A stretch of DNA of 20,898 nt, taken from contig JAURNJ010000222.1 in NCBI GenBank assembly GCA_030830245.1, forward strand, positions 1 to 20,898, given 5' to 3'. Origin of the DNA: Novosphingobium sp. (lineage in GTDB: Bacteria; Pseudomonadota; Alphaproteobacteria; Sphingomonadales; Sphingomonadaceae). This document shows positions 1,084 through 20,898 of this stretch, one piece after another. Positions within the stretch are counted from its first letter, which is position 1; each line of letters begins with the position of its first letter. The notes under the pieces are model-generated. The model saw only the letters and a program-made list of their open reading frames with translations, had not been told where the DNA came from and did not search any database. The position numbers were made by a program, and so were the translations under genes.

Positions 1084-1173
1084 CTATGAAGGCGCCTATT
1101 GCTTGCAATGCCTTTGGGCCCTGCCAACAGTCGAGGCCAACTGTCAGGCGCGAGTTGCAGGAAAGGAACCGTC

Positions 1174-1620
1174 ATGAGCAGGGTTGCCACGTTTTCGGCC
1201 GAAAGCGGCGTGGGAATTGTCGCCATCGATTCGCCACCGGTGAATGCGTTAGGGATCAACGTTCGGCGCGGCCTGAACGAGGGTTTCGAGCAATTCGCTG
1301 CCGACGATGCCGTGGAGTCGATCGTTCTGATCTGCGGCGGCAGGACGTTTTTCGCCGGCGCCGACATTTCGGAATTCGGCAAGGCACAGGAAGGGCCTGG
1401 CCTTCAGGCAGTTTTCGATCTGATCGAGGATGGCAGCAAGCCGGTGATCGCCGCAATCCACGGCACTGCGCTGGGCGGCGGTTACGAATTGGCGCTGATC
1501 TGCCATTACCGCATCGCCGTGCCTTCGGCCATGGTCGGGCTGCCTGAAGTCAATCTCGGGCTGCTGCCGGGCGCGGGCGGAACCCAGCGCCTGCCGCGCG
1601 AGGAGAACGGCAAGCTCTAA
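1174..1620 (+). pseudogene. 3'-truncated enoyl-CoA hydratase / FadJ-type crotonase domain
   Basis: The 148-residue frame starts at ATG 1174 behind GGAAAGGA and encodes the N-terminal half of a canonical crotonase: [10 protein letters not shown] at 59-68, [20 protein letters not shown] at 89-108 and [20 protein letters not shown] at 123-142. Both catalytic glutamates (Glu105 and Glu125) are present. The sequence resembles the hydratase domain of FadB/FadJ multifunctional enzymes. Homology ends abruptly after TQRLPR, and a foreign six-residue tail (EENGKL) leads to TAA. Single-domain crotonases need about 110 more residues, including the trimerisation helices, and FadJ-type proteins need about 550. 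I recognise no continuation in the next 84 bases. A deletion or recombination scar fits best. It may still be translated, since its start region is intact. Confidence 0.7.
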
Positions 1621-6312: not shown

Positions 6313-6349
6313 CGGAGGCTGCGCTTTTCTCGCCTGTCAGGCGCCTCCG
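6313..6349. terminator. Stem-loop in the convergent region of the TetR gene and the SDR relic
   Basis: CGGAGGC-T-GC (6313-6322) can pair with GCGCCTCCG (6341-6349), a 9-bp stem with one bulged T. The loop contains TTTTCT and the smaller hairpin CGCCTG-T-CAGGCG. It starts 49 nt after the TetR stop and overlaps the last codons of the minus-strand SDR relic. This is a reasonable terminator candidate without a proper 3' T tract. Confidence 0.3.
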
Positions 6350-6528
6350 CTTGCGACGATATCCTGCCCAGTGATCCAGCGGCCATCGTTTCCGCAGAGG
6401 AATGCGACAACGCCCGCGATATCTTCCGGCGTGCCGAGCCGCCCAGCGGTGCGACATAGGCGGCAATCCTTTGGGCCGATGCCGCGCGTTCCTCCGGTGA
6501 CGGTCGCGACCTTTTGCTCAAGATTCAT
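6337..6528 (-). pseudogene. SDR relic with a large internal deletion
   Basis: A frame of 63 residues starts at ATG 6528 behind AAGAAGGGG. It opens with a perfect SDR N-terminus ([18 protein letters not shown]) and ends with a perfect SDR C-terminus ([16 protein letters not shown]...[11 protein letters not shown]). The roughly 180 residues between, including the Ser-Tyr-Lys active site, are missing. Just after the junction another frame reads [11 protein letters not shown], the expected lead into GRLGTPED. A single base is missing at the CTGGGCGGCTC run, so the relic carries a big deletion plus a one-base deletion that restores the downstream frame. The C-terminal part resembles the intact SDR at 8993-9736 ([16 protein letters not shown]), so the two are probably paralogues. 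Confidence 0.8.
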
Positions 6529-6847
6529 CCGCCCCTTCTTGATCCTGCCCGCCCAAGCGCTGCCTGCGGGCGCCCGATGCCATCGCCGGTGCGCAGCGCG
6601 GGTGGCTGGCGGCACACACTTTCACGACTTGTCCGAATAGTCGAGAGTAGGGCGTTCACCACACCGCAACTTAGCATAGCGCTCGAACCAGCTGCGAGAT
6701 CGTGAGTACATGAGATGGGTTGCTTCTGTCAGTCTTTTGGCCACAGATCAGCAATCACTTGACTGATCGTCCAAATTAGGGTGATCTGACGATGGAAGAA
6801 TGGGGCGCGATGCCGCTAGGTGACGCTGCACCAAACTGGAGAAATGT
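6529..6847. other. Intergenic region upstream of the SnoaL-like gene
   Basis: I find no convincing gene in these roughly 320 bases. The stretch from about 6650 to 6780 is lower in GC than its surroundings and carries a GATCAG/CTGATC inverted repeat (6746-6751 and 6763-6768). It also carries an imperfect relative of the TTGAC operator at 6759-6774. It probably holds the promoter of the gene starting at 6848. Confidence 0.35.
6759..6774. promoter_or_regulatory. Degenerate TTGAC-type site upstream of the SnoaL-like gene
   Basis: TTGACTGATCGTCCAA agrees with the perfect site at 5293-5308 at TTGAC, the central GAT and the final CAA (11 of 16 positions). Its internal symmetry is weaker (GAC-N5-GTC). 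It lies 73 nt before the start codon at 6848. As a third member of the operator set it is only suggestive. Confidence 0.2.
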
Positions 6848-13501: not shown

Positions 13502-13909
13502 ATGACTATCGCGCGACCATACCCCAGACTGACCCCGGAGAACGCGTTTTTCTGGGGCTCAGGCAAAGATGGCGTCTTGCGTTTCCAGCGGTGCGGGGGA
13601 TGCGGCCACTTTCTTCACCCGCCATCGCCGCGATGCCCGCAATGCCTAGGGGCCGACATTGCGATTGTGCCGGTGTCAGGCCGAGCCACGGTACTGGCGC
13701 GCACGGTCAACCAGCACCAGTGGCACCCGGCGTTCCCGCCGCCTTACCTGATCGCGCTGGTCGAGATCGAGGAGGCGCCTTATGTTCGCCTCACTACCCG
13801 CATCGTGAACTGTGCGCCCGACGAGGTAGCGATCGGCATGCGTGTGCGGGTCGTTTTCGAAGCGCAGGGCCCGGCGTGGCTTCCCCTGTTCGAACCGGAT
13901 CGTGGATGA
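13502..13909 (+). CDS. DUF35 Zn-ribbon/OB-fold protein, thiolase-partner type
   Basis: The 135-residue protein shows the rubredoxin-like zinc ribbon Cys31-X2-Cys34...Cys45-X2-Cys48 (CGGCGHFLHPPSPRCPQC). The OB-fold segment follows, with SGRATVLARTVNQHQWHPAF and YLIALVEIEEAPYVRLTTRI. The opening PRLTPENAFFWGSGKDGVLRFQRC is typical of the family. Such proteins bind acyl-CoA and form complexes with thiolase-fold partners; ChsH2-DUF35 with Ltp2 in steroid side-chain cleavage is the characterised case. Its TGA overlaps the ATG of the thiolase-fold gene (ATGA), so translation is coupled and the products probably form one complex. No convincing ribosome site precedes ATG 13502: GGAGG lies about 13 nt away. 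Confidence 0.88.
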   Translation: MTIARPYPRLTPENAFFWGSGKDGVLRFQRCGGCGHFLHPPSPRCPQCLGADIAIVPVSGRATVLARTVNQHQWHPAFPPPYLIALVEIEEAPYVRLTTRIVNCAPDEVAIGMRVRVVFEAQGPAWLPLFEPDRG

Positions 13910-15093
13910 TGGACAAGTTCGAAAGCAAGAGCCGGATCACTGGCATCGGCCTGTCGCAAGTCGGGCGCAGGCTGGGCCTCAATCCCGTCGGCCTCGCCAT
14001 TGATGCCTGCCTCGCCGCGCTCGGCGATGCGGGGCTTACGCGTAATGACATCGACGGGCTCGCCTGTCACATGGGGCCGGTATCGTCGGACGGCTACAGC
14101 GGGGCTGGAGTGATCGATGTCGAGGAAGTCCTGCGCATCCATCCAAAATGGTTCGTTTCAGGGCACGAAATGGCGGGGCACAGTGGGCCTATCCTGCAAG
14201 CTGCGCTGGCCATAGCGGCTGGACTGTGCCGTCATGTCCTGATCTTTCGCAGTACCTGGGAATCCACCTCACAGGCGCGCATGCGCGAGGGCCAAGATGC
14301 GGCGCCGGTGGCTCCGTGGGTCGAAGGCGATCACCAGTGGCGCCTGCCGTTTGGGGCCTTCTCGGCAGCGAACTGGATTGCGCTCTACGCGGACCGTCAT
14401 TTTCACCAATATGGCACAACACGCGAGCAGCTAGGAGCAATTGCGCTCAATGCACGTGCCAATGCAGCGCTGAACCCCTACGCGGTCTACCGCGATCCGC
14501 TGACGATGGACGACTACCTCTCGGCCCGGATGATCTCGACCCCGCTCGGCCTTTACGATTGTGACGTTCCTTGCGATGGGGCGGTGGCGATGGTGCTCTC
14601 GGCAGCGGATGCGGCAAGGGACACGCGCCGACCCAACCCCATTCGCATTGAGGCGGTGGGCGGCCAGACCAGCGAGCGTTGGAGTTGGGACCAGGGCACG
14701 ATTGATCACGAGCCGCTGATGAAGGGTGCCGCAAGCTCCATGTGGTCGCGCACCGACCTTAAGCCAAGCGATGTCGACATGGCGCAGCTCTACGATGGGT
14801 TTACTTTCAATTGCCTCAGTTGGCTCGAAACCCTCGGCTTCTGTCCGATGGGAGAGGGCGGCCGCTTCGTCGAGGGCGGGGCGTCCATAGCACTTGACGG
14901 CGAATTGCCCCTCAACACGCACGGGGGGCAACTATCGGCTGGCCGGCTCCAGGGTTACAGCTTCTTGCACGAGGCCTGCATCCAGCTCTGGGGAGAGGCG
15001 GGCGAGCGGCAGGTGCCCAGGGGGCCGCAGGTTGCCGTCATCTCTACTGGTGGAGGCGCGCCAGGCGGTGCCATGCTGCTGACGCAAGGTTGA
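13906..15093 (+). CDS. Thiolase-fold protein without thiolase cysteines (Ltp2-like aldolase or lipid-transfer type)
   Basis: The 395-residue product has the thiolase fold (LAIDACLAALGDAGLTRNDIDGLACHMG at 30-57; YDGFTFNCLSWLETLGFCPMGEGG at 296-319). The region where thiolases carry the nucleophilic Cys (about 85-95) reads SGHEMAGHSGP, with no cysteine. The C-terminal CxG motif is STGGGAPGG (380-388), so the second Cys is also gone. NTHGG keeps His339. Tyr296 (QLYDGF) and Tyr351 (QGYSFLHE) are in the segments where Ltp2-type retro-aldolases have essential tyrosines. Cleavage of a beta-hydroxy, or branched, acyl-CoA by retro-aldol reaction is therefore more likely than thiolysis. I start at ATG 13906, overlapping the DUF35 stop; ATG 13909 is an equal choice. 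The DUF35 partner immediately upstream supports a two-protein complex. Confidence 0.85.
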   Translation: MMDKFESKSRITGIGLSQVGRRLGLNPVGLAIDACLAALGDAGLTRNDIDGLACHMGPVSSDGYSGAGVIDVEEVLRIHPKWFVSGHEMAGHSGPILQAALAIAAGLCRHVLIFRSTWESTSQARMREGQDAAPVAPWVEGDHQWRLPFGAFSAANWIALYADRHFHQYGTTREQLGAIALNARANAALNPYAVYRDPLTMDDYLSARMISTPLGLYDCDVPCDGAVAMVLSAADAARDTRRPNPIRIEAVGGQTSERWSWDQGTIDHEPLMKGAASSMWSRTDLKPSDVDMAQLYDGFTFNCLSWLETLGFCPMGEGGRFVEGGASIALDGELPLNTHGGQLSAGRLQGYSFLHEACIQLWGEAGERQVPRGPQVAVISTGGGAPGGAMLLTQG

Positions 15094-15152
15094 GGAAAGG
15101 CTGAGTGCTGCCATTGCTCTAGCGCGAGCTTGCCCGTAGACGCGCCTCAACC

Positions 15153-15163
15153 AAGTAATACAA
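15153..15163. promoter_or_regulatory. FadR/GntR-type half-site pair upstream of first GntR gene
   Basis: AAGTAATACAA fits the FadR-subfamily operator pattern TNGTNNNACNA at all fixed positions but the first. It lies 71 nt before ATG 15224, in the 130-nt gap after the thiolase-fold gene, and would suit autoregulation. It also argues that the GTG at 15179 lies close to the transcript start rather than being the true start codon. Confidence 0.3.
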
Positions 15164-15223
15164 GGTAGATTCGGAGCTGTGCCAGACAAGATATCGACCA
15201 AGACGACCGGCGTTGACAACTTC

Positions 15224-16000
15224 ATGAGCATTTCGCTGCAAGTCCCCAAGGCCTCGCAGATCGTCGCAAATGACTTGAAGGGGCGGATTGCGCGCCGGGA
15301 AATTCTCGCAGGCGAGTGCCTGCCGCCCGAACCCGAGTTGATGACGCAATACGAAGTATCGCGTCCGACCTTGCGCGAGGCGATCCGCATTCTTGAGACG
15401 CAAGGCTTGCTCACCACCACGCGTGGCGGACGCAAGGGTGCGCGGGTGCATCATCCGTCGTCCGAGCAGGCTGCCGAACAGGCGGCGTTGGCCCTGCAAC
15501 TTCATGGCGCTTCGCTGCTGGATATCATGCAACTAGCGGCCGCGATGACGCCGGCTGCGGCAAGGCTTGCTGCCGAGCGGCGCCCGCGGCCGGACCTGAC
15601 AACTGCCAACCGGCATTATGAAGACGTCGGCCGAGCGGGCGGCGATCCGCGCGCTGCAACGTTGGCGCTGCATCGTCTGAAGGCCGAGATTTGTGCGCTG
15701 TCGGGCAACGAGGCGCTCAAGCTGATCGCGGGAATGATGACGATGATCGTCCAACTTCAGCTCGATGCTGTGCCCGAAAGAGTCGAGGATCTGCCGCCCG
15801 AAAATGTGGAGCATTGGCAGGAAACCTACAACCGTATCGGCCTGGGGCTGCGCGCCATCAAGACCGGCGCGGCGGTAAAGGCCGAACGGCTGATCCGGCA
15901 GAGTCTCGAAGAGGCGGTGGTCTACTATAAACGGATCGTTGCGCGCGATCCGTTGCACTTCATCCCGGATTGGCGGCCCCGTTCCTCCGAGAGCGAGTAG
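15224..16000 (+). CDS. FadR-subfamily GntR transcriptional regulator (copy 1)
   Basis: The product is 258 residues from ATG 15224. A winged helix-turn-helix at about 10-78 has LPPEPELMTQYEVSRPTLREAIRILETQGLL and the wing TRGGRKGARV. An all-helical FCD effector domain follows (about 95-245; HRLKAEICALSGNEALKLI). The final metal-ligand His typical of FCD domains is not obvious in its last helix (IRQSLEEAVVYY), so metal or ligand binding may differ. A GTG at 15179 would add 15 residues but has its GGAG only 2 nt upstream. Its DNA-binding half closely resembles the second GntR protein at 16190. It lies directly downstream of the acyl-CoA operon, so it plausibly controls that operon in response to an acyl-CoA or carboxylate. 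Confidence 0.85.
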   Translation: MSISLQVPKASQIVANDLKGRIARREILAGECLPPEPELMTQYEVSRPTLREAIRILETQGLLTTTRGGRKGARVHHPSSEQAAEQAALALQLHGASLLDIMQLAAAMTPAAARLAAERRPRPDLTTANRHYEDVGRAGGDPRAATLALHRLKAEICALSGNEALKLIAGMMTMIVQLQLDAVPERVEDLPPENVEHWQETYNRIGLGLRAIKTGAAVKAERLIRQSLEEAVVYYKRIVARDPLHFIPDWRPRSSESE

Positions 16001-16020
16001 GCTGCCGACCCGCTTCGGAC

Positions 16021-16049
16021 GGACCTGCCACTTATAGGCAGGGTGGTCC
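16021..16049. terminator. Hairpin downstream of GntR copy 1
   Basis: CCTGCC (16024-16029) and GGCAGG (16037-16042) form a 6-bp stem around ACTTATA. An outer GGAC/GTCC pairing (16021-16024 and 16046-16049) is possible across a small bulge. It begins 21 nt after the stop at 16000. No T tract follows, so termination would need Rho or another factor. It separates the two GntR genes into probable independent transcripts. Confidence 0.4.
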
Positions 16050-16085
16050 CGAGAGTGGATCAGTTCGGCAAGTTTGAGCGTCGGC

Positions 16086-16127
16086 TTGCCATGGTCAGTG
16101 GTGAATGTTATCTCTATTAGTCATAAT
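16086..16127 (+). promoter_or_regulatory. AT-rich promoter/operator candidate for GntR copy 2
   Basis: TTGCCA (16086-16091) is followed after 17 nt by TATCTC (16109-16114), a weak sigma70-like pair. Overlapping its downstream edge is ATTA-GTCA-TAAT (16116-16127), an inverted repeat. The patch is the least GC-rich part of the 189-nt gap and sits about 60-100 nt before the GTG at 16190. Autoregulation by the GntR protein is plausible but not shown by a consensus match. Confidence 0.3.
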
Positions 16128-16189
16128 GTTTGCTGCTTTGAAGCGCCGACAGACAGGTGGCAGAAATCGCATGAAGGGGTGATTCAAGC

Positions 16190-16960
16190 GTGAATGAGAT
16201 GGCGGCCAAGCCTGTCCGGGTACCCAAGACGGCCGAACTGGTTGCCGATCAGATTCGGCGGCGCATCGTTACCGGAGAGCTCAAGGACGGAGATTTCCTT
16301 CCGCCCGAGAGCAAGCTCGTCACCAGCCTCGGCATCTCGCGTCCGACCTTGCGTGAGGCGTTTCGCATTCTGGAGGCGGAGAATTTCATCAGAGTGGTTC
16401 GCGGCTCGCGGACCGGCGCCAGCGTTCACACCCCGCGAGTGGAAGCGGCCTCACGCTACGCTGGCTTCGTGTTGCAATCCCAGGGCGCACGCATCGCCGA
16501 CATTTACGAGGCGCGTCTGGCGTTCGAACCTTACGTCGCCGCGCGCCTCAGCGAAGAGCGACCCGCTGGTGCGGTCGATCGGCTAAGGGAAGAAATTCTC
16601 CACCTCGAGTCCTTCATCGAGCAGGAAGATTTCGTCAACTTCATGATCGGGGTGGCAGGGTTCCACCGCCTGCTGATCGAGCTCAGCGGCAATCCGACCC
16701 TGCTTTTCCTCAGCGACATGCTACAGGATATCGTCGCGCGGTATCAGGTGCGGTTCCTGTCGCGCCATCAGATTTCGATCGACGAGCAGCGCCGAATGGG
16801 TCTGGCGGGGCTGCGCTCGTTCAAGCTTCTAGCCGATCTGGTCGAAACCGGAAACGTGACCGGAGCCGAGGCGCATTGGCGGCTACACATCATCAATGCC
16901 AACAAGGTCTGGCTCTCTCCATCGGACGGGGCCGAACTGGTGAATGCATTCGAAGACTGA
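16190..16960 (+). CDS. FadR-subfamily GntR transcriptional regulator (copy 2)
   Basis: The 256-residue protein starts at GTG 16190, with AAGGGG about 10 nt upstream. ATG 16199 is an alternative three codons later. The winged helix-turn-helix (about 12-82) reads KTAELVADQIRRRIVTGELK, LPPESKLVTSLGISRPTLREAFRILEAENF and the wing VRGSRTGASV. The FCD domain (about 100-245) includes FHRLLIELSGNPTLLFL and ends with HWRLHI, keeping the metal-ligand histidine that copy 1 lacks. The shared RPTLREA-RILE core suggests an old tandem duplication with ligand specificities that have since diverged. It is the last gene before a 336-nt gap and could govern either the operon behind it or the kinase-ACAD genes ahead. 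Confidence 0.87.
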   Translation: MNEMAAKPVRVPKTAELVADQIRRRIVTGELKDGDFLPPESKLVTSLGISRPTLREAFRILEAENFIRVVRGSRTGASVHTPRVEAASRYAGFVLQSQGARIADIYEARLAFEPYVAARLSEERPAGAVDRLREEILHLESFIEQEDFVNFMIGVAGFHRLLIELSGNPTLLFLSDMLQDIVARYQVRFLSRHQISIDEQRRMGLAGLRSFKLLADLVETGNVTGAEAHWRLHIINANKVWLSPSDGAELVNAFED

Positions 16961-17296
16961 TCCTTTCCGGAGGCTCATGACGCACTGCGGTGTAAACCGT
17001 GCCCGCGCAGCAATGTCCGATTGGGGCGATCCATAGACTGCAGCACCTGAGCGCACCTCGGGTCCAAACTTGGCTTTTATCCTGCTTGCTGGCCATCCAG
17101 CTTCCTCGCTGGACGCAGCTGTTTAACACGATGCCGTCTGCTTTGGCTGCAGAATTCCAAGGATACAGAGATTTGCCTGCTGTCGTGGCGGCGCTGTAAG
17201 GCACGCAGGCAACGTCCTGATTCTGCGCAATCGTGGCGATAAGATTTGACACAGATAATGCAATTTGACATCAAAGTTCCATTAAGGAGATCGGGG
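16961..17296. other. Intergenic region before the kinase-ACAD block
   Basis: No gene can be supported in this 336-nt gap. A plus-strand frame of 66 codons (16999-17199) and a minus-strand frame of 119 codons (16893-17252) stay open, but neither resembles a known protein. Base composition is visibly less GC-rich than in the flanking genes. The right end carries TTTGACA repeats and the ribosome site of the kinase gene. Confidence 0.4.
17245..17275 (+). promoter_or_regulatory. Direct repeat of TTTGACA plus TTTGA-CA-TCAAA palindrome upstream of kinase gene
   Basis: TTTGACA occurs at 17245-17251 and again at 17264-17270, about two helical turns apart (19 nt). The second copy is half of the palindrome TTTGACATCAAA (17264-17275). 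Each includes a perfect -35-like TTGACA, but no good -10 follows at 16-18 nt. The element ends 21 nt before the TTG start codon. It may be a tandem operator for the MarR or GntR protein nearby. Confidence 0.35.
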
Positions 17297-18391
17297 TTGA
17301 GCGAATTGCAGTCTGCAACCGAATCCCTTGTGGATGCCGCGCGCTTGGCCGAATGGCTCGACGTGAATGCGCCGGAACTTGGCAGCGAACGGCTGCGCGT
17401 CGAGGTCGTTAGCGGGGGAACCAGCAACGTCATTTTCGGTATCGATCGGGGCGGTGTCGCTGCGGTTCTGCGCCGCCCGCCGGCGGTACCGCCTCCGGGC
17501 AGCGGCAAATCCATCCAACGCGAGGCGCGGGTGCTCGGCGCACTGAACGGCACCGATGTACCGCACCCCCATCTCTACGCTCGCTGCGAGGATGAGGACG
17601 TGATCGGTGCACCGTTCTACGTAATGGAGCGGGTTGATGGCTGGGCGGCCAAGTTGACCGATGACGATACTGTATATTCCGCGCCCTTCGACGTGCCGCC
17701 CTGGCGCTACGGCGTGCCCTTCGCGCTGACCGATGCGCTGATCGCGCTCGGCAAGGTTGATTACATGGCGGTGAGCCTCGATGGCTTCGGCAAGCCCCAC
17801 AACTTCCTTGGCCGGCAAGTTGAACGCTGGTCGAGCCAGCTCGCCAGTTACAAGGAGCTCTACAACTATCCGGGCCGGGAACTGCCGGGTTACGCATTCG
17901 TGCGCGATTGGCTGGCCGCGAACATTCCCGCCACGCCGCCGCCGGGTATCATGCATGGTGACGTTGGCACGCCTAATGCGCTGTTTGATCACGGTCCGCC
18001 TTGCCGAGTTAAGGCATTGATTGACTGGGAGCTGTCGACGATAGGCGATCCAATGCTCGATTTCGCCTGGTTTGCCAACGCGCTGCGTGACGAGCGCGAG
18101 CCGGAGCGCGTACCGCGGCACGGAACCTTCGATCCCCGTGATTGTCCCACCCGCCAGGATCTTGCGCGCTATTATGCAGCGGGCACCGGGCGCTCTATCG
18201 AACACCTCGATTATTACCTCGTGCTCGCCCTGTTCAAGGGCGGTTGCATCCTCGAATACAAGGTTGCCGAGGCGATGGCGGGGATCCAGTCCGAGTGGGC
18301 GATCACCTTCTTCGGCCCCATGGTGGTCGAGATGTTCGCCGAGGCCGAGCGCATTGCCCGCAGGGCCGAACGGCAGCCGAAATGGTTCTGA
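17297..18391 (+). CDS. APH-fold phosphotransferase, ACAD10/11 kinase-domain or LvaA-like
   Basis: I start at TTG 17297 because AAGGAG lies 7 nt upstream, giving 364 residues; the in-frame ATG 17258 and TTG 17246 lack a site. The aminoglycoside-phosphotransferase/kinase fold is evident: nucleotide loop SGGTSN at 39-44, VLRRPP at 57-62, the catalytic loop HGDVGTPN (His220, Asp222, Asn227) and the Mg-binding DWE (Asp243-Glu245) in LIDWELSTIGDP. The sequence pattern is that of the kinase domain fused to an acyl-CoA dehydrogenase in animal ACAD10/11, and of LvaA, which phosphorylates 4-hydroxyvaleryl-CoA. An ACAD10/11-type dehydrogenase lies two genes downstream. It therefore probably phosphorylates a 4- (or 3-) hydroxyacyl-CoA rather than an antibiotic. 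Its stop overlaps the MarR start. Confidence 0.87.
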   Translation: MSELQSATESLVDAARLAEWLDVNAPELGSERLRVEVVSGGTSNVIFGIDRGGVAAVLRRPPAVPPPGSGKSIQREARVLGALNGTDVPHPHLYARCEDEDVIGAPFYVMERVDGWAAKLTDDDTVYSAPFDVPPWRYGVPFALTDALIALGKVDYMAVSLDGFGKPHNFLGRQVERWSSQLASYKELYNYPGRELPGYAFVRDWLAANIPATPPPGIMHGDVGTPNALFDHGPPCRVKALIDWELSTIGDPMLDFAWFANALRDEREPERVPRHGTFDPRDCPTRQDLARYYAAGTGRSIEHLDYYLVLALFKGGCILEYKVAEAMAGIQSEWAITFFGPMVVEMFAEAERIARRAERQPKWF

Positions 18392-18855
18392 CCGTGAACG
18401 AGCGCGCCGCCTCATTCGTTCGCTTTCTCGACGAATTCGCGCGCCTGCGCGGGCGCATCCAGTCAGCCTTCGATGCGGTCCACGTGGAAACCGGGCTGAG
18501 CGAACTGGATCTGGTGGTGCTCAACGCAGTCACTGGAGCGGCCCTGCCGCCAACCGTGCCGCAGATCGGCCGCAGCCTTGGCCATGCACGGCAGGTTATC
18601 CAGCGCGCGGCCAATTCGCTGATCGAGCGCGGGCTGATCGAGACCGTGCCTAATCCAGATCACAAGCGGGCACATCGCCTTGTTGCGACCCCGGATGGCC
18701 TTGCGCTCAAGGCCGAGGCGGACCGTGCCGGCCTCGCCCGCGGGGCCGCGCTGACTCTGGGGCTCGAGGTGCAAACAATCGAACAGGCCGTCGGCGCGCT
18801 GCGCCAGATCCGCGAATCCCTTGAAACAAATCTGCGGCGCGAAGGCGTCCGCTAG
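18382..18855 (+). CDS. MarR-family transcriptional regulator
   Basis: The product is 157 residues, the usual MarR length. The winged helix-turn-helix lies at about 57-102: TVPQIGRSLGHARQVIQRAANSLIERGLIE, then the wing PNPDHKRAHRLVATPDG. The N-terminal dimerisation helix is at about 5-35. ATG 18382 overlaps the kinase stop by 10 nt; GTG 18394 is an alternative, and neither has a good ribosome site, which points to translational coupling. It is unusual for a regulator to sit inside the enzyme operon, between kinase and dehydrogenase. MarR proteins in CoA-dependent pathways often bind acyl-CoA esters, so it may sense the pathway thioester and autoregulate the block, perhaps through the repeats at 17245-17275. 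Confidence 0.85.
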   Translation: MVLTVNERAASFVRFLDEFARLRGRIQSAFDAVHVETGLSELDLVVLNAVTGAALPPTVPQIGRSLGHARQVIQRAANSLIERGLIETVPNPDHKRAHRLVATPDGLALKAEADRAGLARGAALTLGLEVQTIEQAVGALRQIRESLETNLRREGVR

Positions 18856-18871
18856 TTACGGAGCAGGCATC

Positions 18872-20179
18872 ATGTGGAGCTTTTTCACCGAACCCGAATT
18901 CCAGACGAAGCTGGACTGGATCAAGCAATTCGTGAAGGACGAGTGCGAGCCGCTCGACCTCCTCTTTCCGCACAATGGCGATCCCTACGACACCGGCAAT
19001 GCAACGGCGCGTGCCATCCTCAAGCCATTGCAGGATGAAGTAAAGCGGCAAGGGCTGTGGGCCTGCCACCTCGATCCGCACCTTGGCGGGCCGGGCTATG
19101 GCCAACTCAAGCTCGCGCTGATGAACGAAATTCTCGGGCGGTCTTACTGGGCACCGACAGTGTTCGGGACGGCGGCTCCCGATACCGGCAACTCCGAGAT
19201 TTTGGCGATGTTCGGAACCGAGGAACAGAAGACTCGCTATCTCCAGCCGCTGCTCGATGGCGAGATCGTCTCCTGCTTCTCGATGACCGAGCCTCACGCC
19301 GGGTCCGATCCGCGGGAGTTCACATGCAAGGCATGGCGCGACGGCGACGAATGGGTGATCGAGGGGGAGAAGTGGTTCTCGTCCAACGCCAGGTTTGCGT
19401 CGTTCCTGATCGTAATGGCAGTGACCGATCCCGAGGCGTCGACTTACAGCCGAATGTCGATGTTCGTGGTTCCGGCCGATGCGCCGGGCGTCAACATCCT
19501 TCGAAATGTCGGCACACTCGACGAGCCGCTCGACACCGACCACGGCACCCATGGCTACATTCGCTATGAAAAGGTGCGGGTGCCGCTTGATGCGATGCTC
19601 GGCGGGCCGGGCGAAGGCTTCAAGGTCGCACAGGCACGTCTCGGCGGCGGACGGATCCATCACGCGATGCGGACTGTGGGCCAATGCGCCCGCGCTATCG
19701 AGATGATAACCGAGCGGGCAGTCTCGCGCCGTACCAAGGGCAAGCTGCTGTCCGAGCACGAGTTCGCGCAAGGCATGATCGCCGATTCCGTAATCGAGCT
19801 CGAGCAGTTCCGGCTGATGGTACTCAAGACTGCGTGGATCATCGATACCCAGCCGCACGGCGCCGCGCGTACCCACATCGCCATGTGCAAGGTGGCGATG
19901 GCGAGGGTCTATCACGACATCGTCCAGCGGGCGATCCAGCTTCATGGCTCGCTGGGCGCCTCGAACGAGACGCCGCTGGCGCGGATGTGGGCGCTGGTGC
20001 CGAGCCTGGCGCTTGCCGATGGCCCGACCGAGGTCCACAAGATCCAGGTCGCCAAGGCCACGCTGAGGAACGCGCAGGCAACGCCGGGGCTGTTTCCGAC
20101 CGACCACAACGTGACGCGGCTCAAGGAGGCACGGCGGCGCTTTGCCGATGTGCTTGCCACCGAAGGGGTCGCCCGATGA
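18872..20179 (+). CDS. Acyl-CoA dehydrogenase of the ACAD10/ACAD11 (LvaC-like) type
   Basis: ATG 18872 follows GGAG by 8 nt and gives 435 residues, longer than typical ACADs and in line with the ACAD10/11 C-terminal domain. Motifs are FSMTEPHAGSDP (136-147), EGEKWFSSNAR (164-174), RLGGGRIHHAMR (256-267) and LADGPTEVHK (381-390). The last two are hallmarks of this subfamily. Asp383 occupies the place of the Glu in the usual YEGTSEI motif, as in ACAD11-like proteins. In the lva pathway and in ACAD10/11, the dehydrogenase fold acts on the phosphorylated 4-hydroxyacyl-CoA made by the kinase and helps expel phosphate, so it need not be a simple FAD oxidase. The gene is 16 nt after the MarR gene and overlaps the following SDR gene (ATGA), giving coupled expression. 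Confidence 0.9.
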   Translation: MWSFFTEPEFQTKLDWIKQFVKDECEPLDLLFPHNGDPYDTGNATARAILKPLQDEVKRQGLWACHLDPHLGGPGYGQLKLALMNEILGRSYWAPTVFGTAAPDTGNSEILAMFGTEEQKTRYLQPLLDGEIVSCFSMTEPHAGSDPREFTCKAWRDGDEWVIEGEKWFSSNARFASFLIVMAVTDPEASTYSRMSMFVVPADAPGVNILRNVGTLDEPLDTDHGTHGYIRYEKVRVPLDAMLGGPGEGFKVAQARLGGGRIHHAMRTVGQCARAIEMITERAVSRRTKGKLLSEHEFAQGMIADSVIELEQFRLMVLKTAWIIDTQPHGAARTHIAMCKVAMARVYHDIVQRAIQLHGSLGASNETPLARMWALVPSLALADGPTEVHKIQVAKATLRNAQATPGLFPTDHNVTRLKEARRRFADVLATEGVAR

Positions 20180-20898
20180 TCGATCCGCTGTTCGACCTTA
20201 CCGGCAAGGTTGCGCTCGTCACCGGCGGAAGCCGCGGACTGGGTTACGAAATGGTGAAAGCATTCGCCAAGCACGGAGCCGATGTCATCATCGCCAGCCG
20301 CAAGCTGGAAAATTGCGAAGCCGTAGCCAAGGAATGCCGCGCCATGGGCCGCCGCGCGCTCGCCGTGGCGGTGCACGCGGCCAGGTGGGACGAGCTCGAT
20401 GCGCTGGTCGAAAAGGCCTACGCCACATTTGGCCGCATCGACATCCTCGTCAATAACGCGGGCATGGGGCCGATGACGCCTAGTCACGAAGTCTCCGAGG
20501 AGCTGTTCGACAAGGTTGTCGGCCTAAATTTCAAGGGGCCGTTCCGCCTCGCCTCTCAGGTTGCCAAGCGTATGTCCGATGGCAATGGCGGGGTGATCAT
20601 CAACGTTTCCTCGAGCGGTGGCACAATGCCGCTGCCGGCCATCGTGCCCTATGGCTCGGCCAAGGCGGCGTTGAATGCGATGACGCTGTCGATGGCGCAC
20701 GAATATGGCCCCAAGGTGCGGGTCAACACGCTTTCAGCCGGCCCCTTCCTGACCGACATTGCCAGGTCATGGGCGCCAGAGGATCGCGAGACCGCGCGCA
20801 ACGCGCTGCACCGCCCGGGCAAGCCGCACGAGGTCGTCACCTCTGCGCTATACCTCGCGAGCCCGGCCTCATCCTATACCACCGGCGCGATGCTGAAG
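20176..20898 (+). CDS. Short-chain dehydrogenase/reductase, 3' end outside window
   Basis: The frame from ATG 20176 is open for 241 codons to the window edge, so only the last 10-15 residues of a classical SDR are missing. Motifs are TGGSRGLG (16-23), NNAG (93-96), Asn118, Ser146, Tyr159 and Lys163 (PYGSAK). Ser41-Arg42 after the second strand suggests NADP binding. The ATG overlaps the ACAD stop (ATGA), so it belongs to the kinase-MarR-ACAD operon. In levulinate catabolism the matching position is filled by the SDR LvaD, which oxidises the 3-hydroxyacyl-CoA formed after dephosphorylation. A similar 3-hydroxyacyl-CoA dehydrogenase role fits here by context. Confidence 0.9.
   Translation, partial: MIDPLFDLTGKVALVTGGSRGLGYEMVKAFAKHGADVIIASRKLENCEAVAKECRAMGRRALAVAVHAARWDELDALVEKAYATFGRIDILVNNAGMGPMTPSHEVSEELFDKVVGLNFKGPFRLASQVAKRMSDGNGGVIINVSSSGGTMPLPAIVPYGSAKAALNAMTLSMAHEYGPKVRVNTLSAGPFLTDIARSWAPEDRETARNALHRPGKPHEVVTSALYLASPASSYTTGAMLK

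What the first reader, a model, noticed from the sequence alone, without database searches (positions are those of the whole stretch)
17297..20898. Split ACAD10/11-like module: kinase, MarR, dehydrogenase, SDR
An APH-fold kinase with intact HGD...N and DWE residues is followed by an ACAD with the LADGPTEVH and GGGRIHHAMR hallmarks of ACAD10/11, then an SDR. Animals fuse the first two domains. Pseudomonas putida uses separate LvaA, LvaC and LvaD to phosphorylate 4-hydroxyacyl-CoA, eliminate phosphate and oxidise the resulting 3-hydroxyacyl-CoA. The order here suggests the same chemistry, apparently without an LvaB partner in view and with its own MarR sensor. The substrate may be larger than levulinate given the surrounding genes.
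Basis: partly seen in the sequence, partly recalled or inferred. Interest (0 to 1): 0.75.

Follow-up and report, generated by a model that had tools for sequence, protein, structure and literature searches.

The report
Third-lineage 4-hydroxy-acid phospho-elimination operon
A Novosphingobium-like bacterium carries a small operon, with its own regulator, that probably uses ATP to strip a misplaced hydroxyl group from CoA-bound acids so they can be burned as fuel; it resembles a known animal and Pseudomonas pathway but belongs to a separate branch of it.

Summary
In detail: APH-fold kinase (17297-18391), MarR (18382-18855), ACAD11-like flavoprotein (18872-20179) and SDR (20176-20898, cut by the contig end) form a tight operon. 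The residues assigned to phosphate handling in mouse ACAD11 (R626, H634, R637, base D753) are kept in the window ACAD, as in 22/22, 45/45 and 3/3 members of three family branches, and in 0 of 9 ordinary ACADs. But it is neither an LvaC nor an ACAD11 orthologue: with relatives from three phyla it forms a third, fully supported branch. The kinase likewise has its own branch. No LvaB (DUF6285) was found in this draft genome or in its close relative G011. The kinase keeps two arginines linked to CoA binding, which 13 of 13 LvaB-linked kinases lack; those 13 are one clade. Of 44 closest named loci, 42 have a kinase, 36 the SDR and 23 a MarR beside the ACAD. A palindrome TGACAC-N4-GTGTCA lies upstream of MarR in 22 of 23; the window holds a degenerate tandem copy. 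Most likely function: ATP-dependent conversion of 4-hydroxyacyl-CoA to 2-enoyl-CoA. Substrate unknown, activity untested.

The parts
17246..17281 (+). candidate MarR operator: two TTGACA half-sites 19 bp apart (TTGACACAGATAATGCAA and TTGACATCAAAGTTCCA), just upstream of the kinase
   Evidence: same tandem 19-bp spacing as in 8 relatives; in the window itself degenerate (3 mismatches for the second copy, 4 by eye for the first), not significant alone
17297..18391 (+). APH-fold kinase, proposed 4-hydroxyacyl-CoA kinase (R75-E76, R173, D222, N227, D243-W-E)
18382..18855 (+). MarR-family regulator, overlaps the kinase end by 10 nt
18872..20179 (+). ACAD of the ACAD10/11-LvaC superfamily, third branch; R256, R261, H264, R267, D383 equal mouse ACAD11 R626, R631, H634, R637, D753
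20176..20898 (+). SDR oxidoreductase, 3' end cut off by the contig end
   Evidence: relative at 50% identity or more within 1.2 kb of the ACAD in 36 of 44 close loci
13502..16960 (+). flanking block OB-fold (13502-13909), thiolase (about 13900-15093), GntR (15179-16000), GntR (16190-16960); keeps its place next to the module in L040 (G011), membership of the pathway not shown
   Evidence: L040: 79, 88, 80, 73% identity

Best explanation
An inducible operon for ATP-dependent removal of a 4-hydroxyl group from an acyl-CoA. Proposed steps: (i) the SDR makes or consumes the hydroxyl (4-oxo to 4-hydroxyacyl-CoA, or 3-hydroxy to 3-oxo; inferred, undecided); (ii) the kinase phosphorylates the 4-hydroxyl of the acyl-CoA, gripping CoA with its own arginines instead of an LvaB partner (inferred from residues); (iii) the ACAD holds the phosphate with R256, H264, R267, takes the C2 proton with D383 and, with a flavin that is reduced and re-oxidised on the substrate, expels phosphate to give 2-enoyl-CoA (inferred from identity with residues tested by mutation in ACAD11); (iv) hydratase and thiolase finish the job (inferred). 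MarR binds a tandem palindrome upstream of the first gene and is released by the substrate or a CoA ester (inferred). Shown here: gene order, family, residues, phylogeny, conserved linkage, conserved palindrome in relatives.
For: Residues: with functions from PMC12440821 section 7 and PMC11342911 section 13; 80 of 80 named relatives keep the cluster and the Asp. Branching. Linkage: 42 of 44 close named loci have a kinase within 2.5 kb of the ACAD (36 on the same strand), 36 the SDR, 23 a MarR. Kinases beside this ACAD branch form largely their own clade (48 rows, SH-aLRT 97) holding no kinase that adjoins an ACAD11-type ACAD. Operator. In Pseudomonas ullengensis and Pseudomonas sp. TH41 the genes sit in one run MarR-kinase-ACAD-three SDRs-acyl-CoA ligase (L199, L205), the enzyme kinds of the lva operon without LvaB.
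Against: No activity data for any member of this branch showed up in the listings. Kinase is only 30% identical to the ACAD11 kinase and 27% to LvaA over 178 positions; in the fold search the ACAD11 kinase is not among the 50 rows shown, while 3ats, a 25-hydroxysteroid kinase and antibiotic kinases are. In 27 of 36 more distant members (below 61% identity, many mycobacterial) no kinase lies within 2.5 kb, though 12 of the 36 have under 2.5 kb of DNA on one side. Actinobacterial members pair with another kinase lineage lacking the R176 equivalent. Branch-specific changes near the motifs (N466G, P629G, C635A, D756T) could shift the reaction.
Confidence: 0.75

Rival explanations
1. Same two-step chemistry but on a non-standard, bulky (alicyclic, branched or steroid-like) acyl-CoA whose activated hydroxyl is not on a simple straight chain.
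For: Neighbours fit alicyclic or branched acid catabolism (OB plus SCPx-like thiolase, several SDRs, CoA ligases); MaoC and amidohydrolase near the L040 copy; several branch-specific replacements in the ACAD are to smaller residues (N466G, C635A, C546A, Y448L, P629G). Fold search places the 25-hydroxysteroid kinase third after 3dxp and 3ats.
Against: Neighbourhood differs from host to host; no pocket geometry was computed; R256, H264, R267 are unchanged, which fits a phosphate at C4.
Confidence: 0.4
2. The kinase acts on a free alcohol (as 25-hydroxysteroid kinase does, PMC8449060) and the ACAD is a dehydrogenase that happens to be its neighbour.
For: APH-fold kinases for free alcohols exist (passages; fold hits 9fsg, 9ft5).
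Against: CoA-linked arginines kept; ACAD has the phosphate cluster and not the ordinary residues; tight linkage.
Confidence: 0.1
3. It is a levulinate operon of the lva type that has lost LvaB.
For: Kinase, ACAD, SDR in one operon; one published lva cluster (P. citronellolis) was reported without LvaB.
Against: ACAD and kinase fall outside the LvaC and LvaA clades anchored on the lva operon of L157 (the operon recurs in L259-L262); no sigma-54 LvaR, LvaF or LvaG in view; the own genome is incomplete, so loss is not provable.
Confidence: 0.1

Closest known systems
ACAD10/ACAD11 (animal fused kinase-ACAD, 4-hydroxy acid catabolism; PMC12440821, PMC11342911)
   Same: Both domains, the catalytic and phosphate-binding residues; ACAD 40% and kinase 30% identical to mouse ACAD11.
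   Different: Separate genes in an operon; both proteins lie outside the ACAD11 clade; own MarR.
LvaA-LvaB-LvaC-LvaD of the Pseudomonas lva operon
   Same: Kinase, ACAD and SDR side by side; phosphate cluster kept.
   Different: ACAD 34% identical and in another clade; no DUF6285 partner; kinase keeps the arginine pair that LvaA lacks; MarR instead of a PrpR-type sigma-54 activator.
Bacterial stand-alone ACAD11-type ACADs and kinases (4hr3; 3dxp; 9o56)
   Same: Same folds, separate genes.
   Different: A MarR of this family lay within 3 kb of the ACAD in 0 of 43 ACAD11-branch loci, against 8 of 21 window-branch loci.
25-hydroxysteroid kinase of Sterolibacterium (PMC8449060)
   Same: APH-fold kinase turning an alcohol into a phosphate leaving group.
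   Different: Free steroid tertiary alcohol; no candidate lyase gene nearby (passages); 18% identity in the fold match.

Membership tests
ACAD10/11-LvaC superfamily (4-phosphoacyl-CoA eliminases) | R626, H634, R637 phosphate cluster, R631 and catalytic Asp D753 | tested here: met
   also 80 of 80 named relatives keep the cluster and the Asp
ACAD10/11-LvaC superfamily (4-phosphoacyl-CoA eliminases) | groups apart from ordinary ACADs | tested here: met
   100/100 (50 against 6 rows); 100 (70 against 9)
ACAD10/11-LvaC superfamily (4-phosphoacyl-CoA eliminases) | phosphate elimination with no external electron acceptor | not testable with these tools
   needs enzyme assay
ACAD11 orthologue | falls in the ACAD11 clade | tested here: not met
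   window branch 100/100, ACAD11 branch 100/99
ACAD11 orthologue | kinase and ACAD on one polypeptide | tested here: not met
lva operon | LvaC-clade ACAD and LvaA-clade kinase | tested here: not met
lva operon | LvaB (DUF6285, PF19802) | tested here: not met
   0 matches in the own genome (72% complete) and in G011 (100% complete)
lva operon | sigma-54 PrpR-type LvaR | tested here: not met
   MarR, two GntR and a TetR are the regulators found in the window; LvaR domains seen in L157; beyond the contig end not seen
4-hydroxyacyl-CoA kinase (ACAD11 type) | catalytic Asp/Asn and arginines next to the alpha-C Glu and at R176 | tested here: met
   (window reads R, E, R, D, N)
4-hydroxyacyl-CoA kinase (ACAD11 type) | phosphorylates 4-hydroxyacyl-CoA, not the free acid | not testable with these tools
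   needs assay
Antibiotic phosphotransferases | reaches the curated family score | tested here: not met
   27 of 205 bits (APH(3')), 20 of 390 (Cph)
MarR regulator of the module | conserved operator upstream of the first gene | tested here: inconclusive
   22 of 23 MarR-bearing relatives; degenerate in the window (25 of 200 shuffles do as well)

The most novel reading that the evidence does not exclude
A third, independently regulated lineage of the phospho-elimination route, spread over Pseudomonadota, Myxococcota and Actinomycetota, dedicated to a 4-hydroxyacyl-CoA other than 4-hydroxyvaleryl-CoA; its kinase does unaided what LvaA does only with LvaB, because two arginines that hold CoA were kept here and were lost where DUF6285 took over that job.
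Probability: 0.45. Interest if true: 0.65.

Novelty: new variant of a known kind. Interest (0 to 1): 0.5.

Why it matters
Phospho-elimination by an ACAD was established recently, in animal ACAD10/11 and the Pseudomonas lva operon (PMC12440821, PMC11342911, PMC6692424). A third branch with a tight operon, a readable operator and no LvaB gives clean material to find new 4-hydroxy acid substrates (gamma-lactones, oxidised lipids, terpenoid or alicyclic acids) and makes the unexplained role of LvaB testable through two arginines. It also suggests that genes labelled 'aminoglycoside phosphotransferase' beside such ACADs are mislabelled.

Tried and rejected
Antibiotic or thiamine kinase: scores far below curated cut-offs. 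Plain beta-oxidation ACAD: rejected by residues and tree. LvaC orthologue: rejected once an lva operon was found by gene order (L157; the R-A-B-C-D-E set recurs in L259-L262, and L263 is a variant).

Search for an LvaC reference: tries in Pseudomonas-like genomes gave ACAD11-type genes only; some searches found it. Discrepancy left open: PMC11342911 (passages) states 62% and 56% identity of the ACAD10 and ACAD11 domains with LvaC, while the L157 gene has 34% with mouse ACAD11. If the published figure holds for strain KT2440, LvaC would belong in or near the ACAD11 clade; the window branch would still be outside it.

Operator: a first 25-letter motif taken from the window and L040 was replaced by the palindrome seen in other relatives; it was tuned on partly the same loci, so one search is not a blind test. 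In one search, 21 of 24 MarR-first loci had a site with at most 2 mismatches (23 with at most 3). Of 13 loci filed there without MarR, L044 and L174 had an exact site and 11 had none within 3 mismatches. One search then found a MarR with a site in L174, and also in L172 and L201, two of those 11, whose MarR the reading-frame step had missed; L044 was not rechecked. The one MarR locus of 23 without a site is L199.

Arginine pair: 0 of 13 LvaB-linked kinases keep either arginine; R176 is kept in 50 of 57 window-ACAD-linked rows (52 distinct) and 35 of 35 others, which include five more kinases near window-branch ACADs. The 13 are one clade (100/99), so this is one event. PMC12440821 names R86; by my count the Arg before the alpha-C Glu is 84, and I assume it is the one meant.

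Link between window-type ACAD and DUF6285 within the genus: 3 of 18 genomes with the former and 7 of 19 without have the latter; no positive link.

Rows dropped or chosen: one search took 4 of 7 other own-genome APH loci; one search left out six long-branch or distant kinases and used 43 of the 51 named loci with a kinase (a length filter), with five pairs of identical rows; one search left out the same six; one search used 38 of the 70 family rows, 12 of 80 named loci and 6 of 9 outgroups; L202 and L209 fell out of the ORF table and came back by tblastn; one search used 41 rows with four fused C-termini cut.
Full report
What is there. The window is one whole contig (C174, 20,898 bp) of a draft genome of 2.14 Mb, about 72% complete. 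The closest named protein hits are from Novosphingobium hassiacum (ACAD 86%, kinase 82%); genome G011 has a contig of the same length (344,511) and is taken to be that organism. At the 3' end four genes run head to tail: kinase 17297-18391 (TTG start, AAGGAG in front), MarR 18382-18855, ACAD 18872-20179, SDR 20176 to the contig end. Neighbours overlap by 10 nt, leave 16 nt and overlap by 4 nt, as in a coupled operon.

The ACAD. Pfam finds the usual ACAD domains. The best PDB relatives are ACAD11 (8v3u, 8v3v), 4hr3 and human ACAD11 2wbi, at 8.6e-80 or better; other ACADs follow at 8e-44 or weaker. Rashan et al. (PMC12440821, sections 7 and 10 read) assign R626, H634 and R637 to the 4-phosphate and D753 to catalysis, with mutants; Paquay et al. 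(PMC11342911, section 13) argue that FAD is reduced and re-oxidised within the cycle. In an alignment of 79 sequences these residues are present in 22 of 22 window-branch, 45 of 45 ACAD11-branch and 3 of 3 LvaC-branch sequences; of 9 ordinary ACADs none has R626, H634, R637 or D753. H597, which those authors found only partly important, is kept in 21 of 22. All of 80 named relatives keep the cluster and the Asp.

Three branches. A careful tree of 56 chosen rows separates the superfamily from ordinary ACADs (100/100) and splits it into LvaC (3 rows, 100/99), ACAD11 with bacterial homologues (23 rows, 100/99) and the window branch (24 rows, 100/100); the last two are sisters (99/96). The quick tree of 79 rows agrees (sister relation 94). 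The window branch holds Sphingomonadales, Pseudomonas, Azoarcus, Haliea, Myxococcota, Nocardia, Rhodococcus and mycobacteria. Within the window's genus it is patchy: 18 of 37 genomes (own one included) have a copy at 53% identity or better, against 0 of 24 from other families of the order (read). Branch-specific residues include G466, G629, A635, T658 and T756 where the ACAD11 branch has N, P, C, A and D.

The LvaC reference. No named lva genes were on hand, so I found the operon by gene order. L157 has a PrpR-type sigma-54 regulator, kinase 352 aa, 118-aa protein, ACAD 390 aa, SDR 255 aa, AMP-ligase, DUF485 and SSF symporter, in keeping with the description of the KT2440 operon (PMC6692424, passages). 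The R-A-B-C-D-E set recurs in L259 to L262; L263 has the divergent arrangement, and identities close to those, reported for P. citronellolis. LvaB is thereby placed in Pfam DUF6285. Paquay et al. give 62% and 56% identity of the ACAD10 and ACAD11 domains to LvaC (passages), I find 34% for mouse ACAD11; this is unresolved, and does not bring the window protein into either clade.

The kinase. phmmer of the PDB gives 3dxp, 9o56 and the ACAD11 kinase domain, then only a weak 3ats. An AlphaFold2 model (mean pLDDT 86) matches 3dxp best (7e-22), then 3ats and the 25-hydroxysteroid kinase 9fsg (3e-13); antibiotic kinases follow from 1e-9, and neither 9o56 nor the ACAD11 kinase is among the 50 rows shown. 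So fold comparison alone would not single out the ACAD11 kinase. In the sequence trees the kinases beside window-branch ACADs form a clade of 48 rows (SH-aLRT 97; five pairs of rows are identical), without any kinase adjoining an ACAD11-type ACAD; one member, L055, lies about 4.2 kb from its ACAD. Outside it lie the kinases of L051, L052 and L057 (next neighbours, together 96), seven actinobacterial ones, and those of L218, L226, L039 and L056; L053 was left out as a long branch. So kinase and ACAD mostly descend together, with some kinase swaps.

LvaB and two arginines. DUF6285 gives 0 matches in the window's genome and in G011, and matches in 10 of 61 genomes searched. In ACAD11 two arginines, one beside the alpha-C Glu and R176, were modelled on CoA. 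The window kinase has both. In one search R176 is kept in 35 of 35 ACAD11-type, 9o56-type and other rows, 50 of 57 window-ACAD-linked rows (the 7 exceptions are actinobacterial) and 0 of 13 kinases with a DUF6285 neighbour or fusion; the other Arg in 35 of 35, 56 of 57 and 0 of 13. Because the 13 form one clade this is one evolutionary event, suggestive and no more: LvaB may supply CoA contacts that the arginines supply elsewhere.

Among the 44 with at least 61% identity, 42 have a kinase within 2.5 kb, 36 the SDR (50% or more, within 1.2 kb) and 23 a MarR; among the 36 below 61%, 9, 5 and 0. Five annotated plasmid regions were read: Rhodococcus rhodochrous has phosphotransferase-ACAD-SDR-quinone oxidoreductase, Streptomyces sp. 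NBC_00080 ACAD-SDR with the phosphotransferase on the other strand, Massilia putida MarR, SDR (other strand), ACAD, phosphotransferase, SDR, Sphingomonas paeninsulae HTH-phosphotransferase with the ACAD after it, and Novosphingobium resinovorum phosphotransferase on the other strand, then ACAD-MarR-MaoC. In Pseudomonas ullengensis and Pseudomonas sp. TH41 MarR, kinase, ACAD, three SDRs and an acyl-CoA ligase stand in one row (L199, L205).

Operator. From 150 bp before to 20 bp into the MarR match, 22 of 23 MarR-bearing named loci have TGACAC-N4-GTGTCA with at most 2 mismatches; a first-order Markov model expects 0.7% per region; in 537 kb, 30 such sites lie there and 5 elsewhere. Eight of the 22 have a second such copy 19 bp on. 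The window, where the kinase comes first and MarR second, has TTGACA at 17246 and 17265, also 19 bp apart, but with degenerate right arms; alone it is not significant. The loci are related and the motif was tuned on some of them.

Function and limits. Residues, linkage and co-descent make ATP-dependent conversion of a 4-hydroxyacyl-CoA to 2-enoyl-CoA the best reading (0.75). Not shown: any activity, the substrate, the SDR's direction, MarR's ligand. I saw no study of this branch in the listings (open-licence PMC only; Rand et al. 2017 itself was not read). Novelty: new variant of a known kind.

Noticed in passing
window 1099-1620 (+): Crotonase (ECH_1) that stops after about 173 residues, covering only positions 3-143 of 251 of the Pfam model; looks like a truncated gene, perhaps the front of a FadB-like protein.
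   Followed up: no
window 6340-6615 (-): C-terminal remnant of an SDR (adh_short_C2 positions 199-234 only), probably a pseudogene between TetR and a SnoaL-like gene.
   Followed up: no
L163:59-2787 (-) and L161:226-3164 (+): In other sphingomonads an APH kinase is fused to (L163, 479 aa) or followed by (L161) a DUF6285 domain and then by an ACAD whose sequence lacks the HHxMR and DGP motifs: a kinase-LvaB-ACAD set of another kind.
   Followed up: partly
L039:1-2744 (own genome, contig C312): A second kinase-ACAD-SDR set in the same genome (ACAD 54% identical, kinase of the 9o56 group), with a pair of ACADs and a thiolase-OB pair further along, as in steroid-type clusters.
   Followed up: partly
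L220, L231, L234, L241 and other mycobacterial loci: Window-branch ACADs of about 59% identity that keep the phosphate-cluster residues but have no kinase within 2.5 kb; the kinase may lie elsewhere in the genome.
   Followed up: no
L178, L179, L181, L185, L188, L190, L196: Actinobacterial kinases beside window-branch ACADs belong to another lineage, lack the R176 equivalent and, going by the equal count of seven, have Gln for the alpha-C Glu.
   Followed up: partly
L263:5672-7100: An lva cluster arranged like that of P. citronellolis has a stretch 42% identical to LvaB beside lvaA (DUF6285), although the published P. citronellolis cluster was reported without lvaB.
   Followed up: partly
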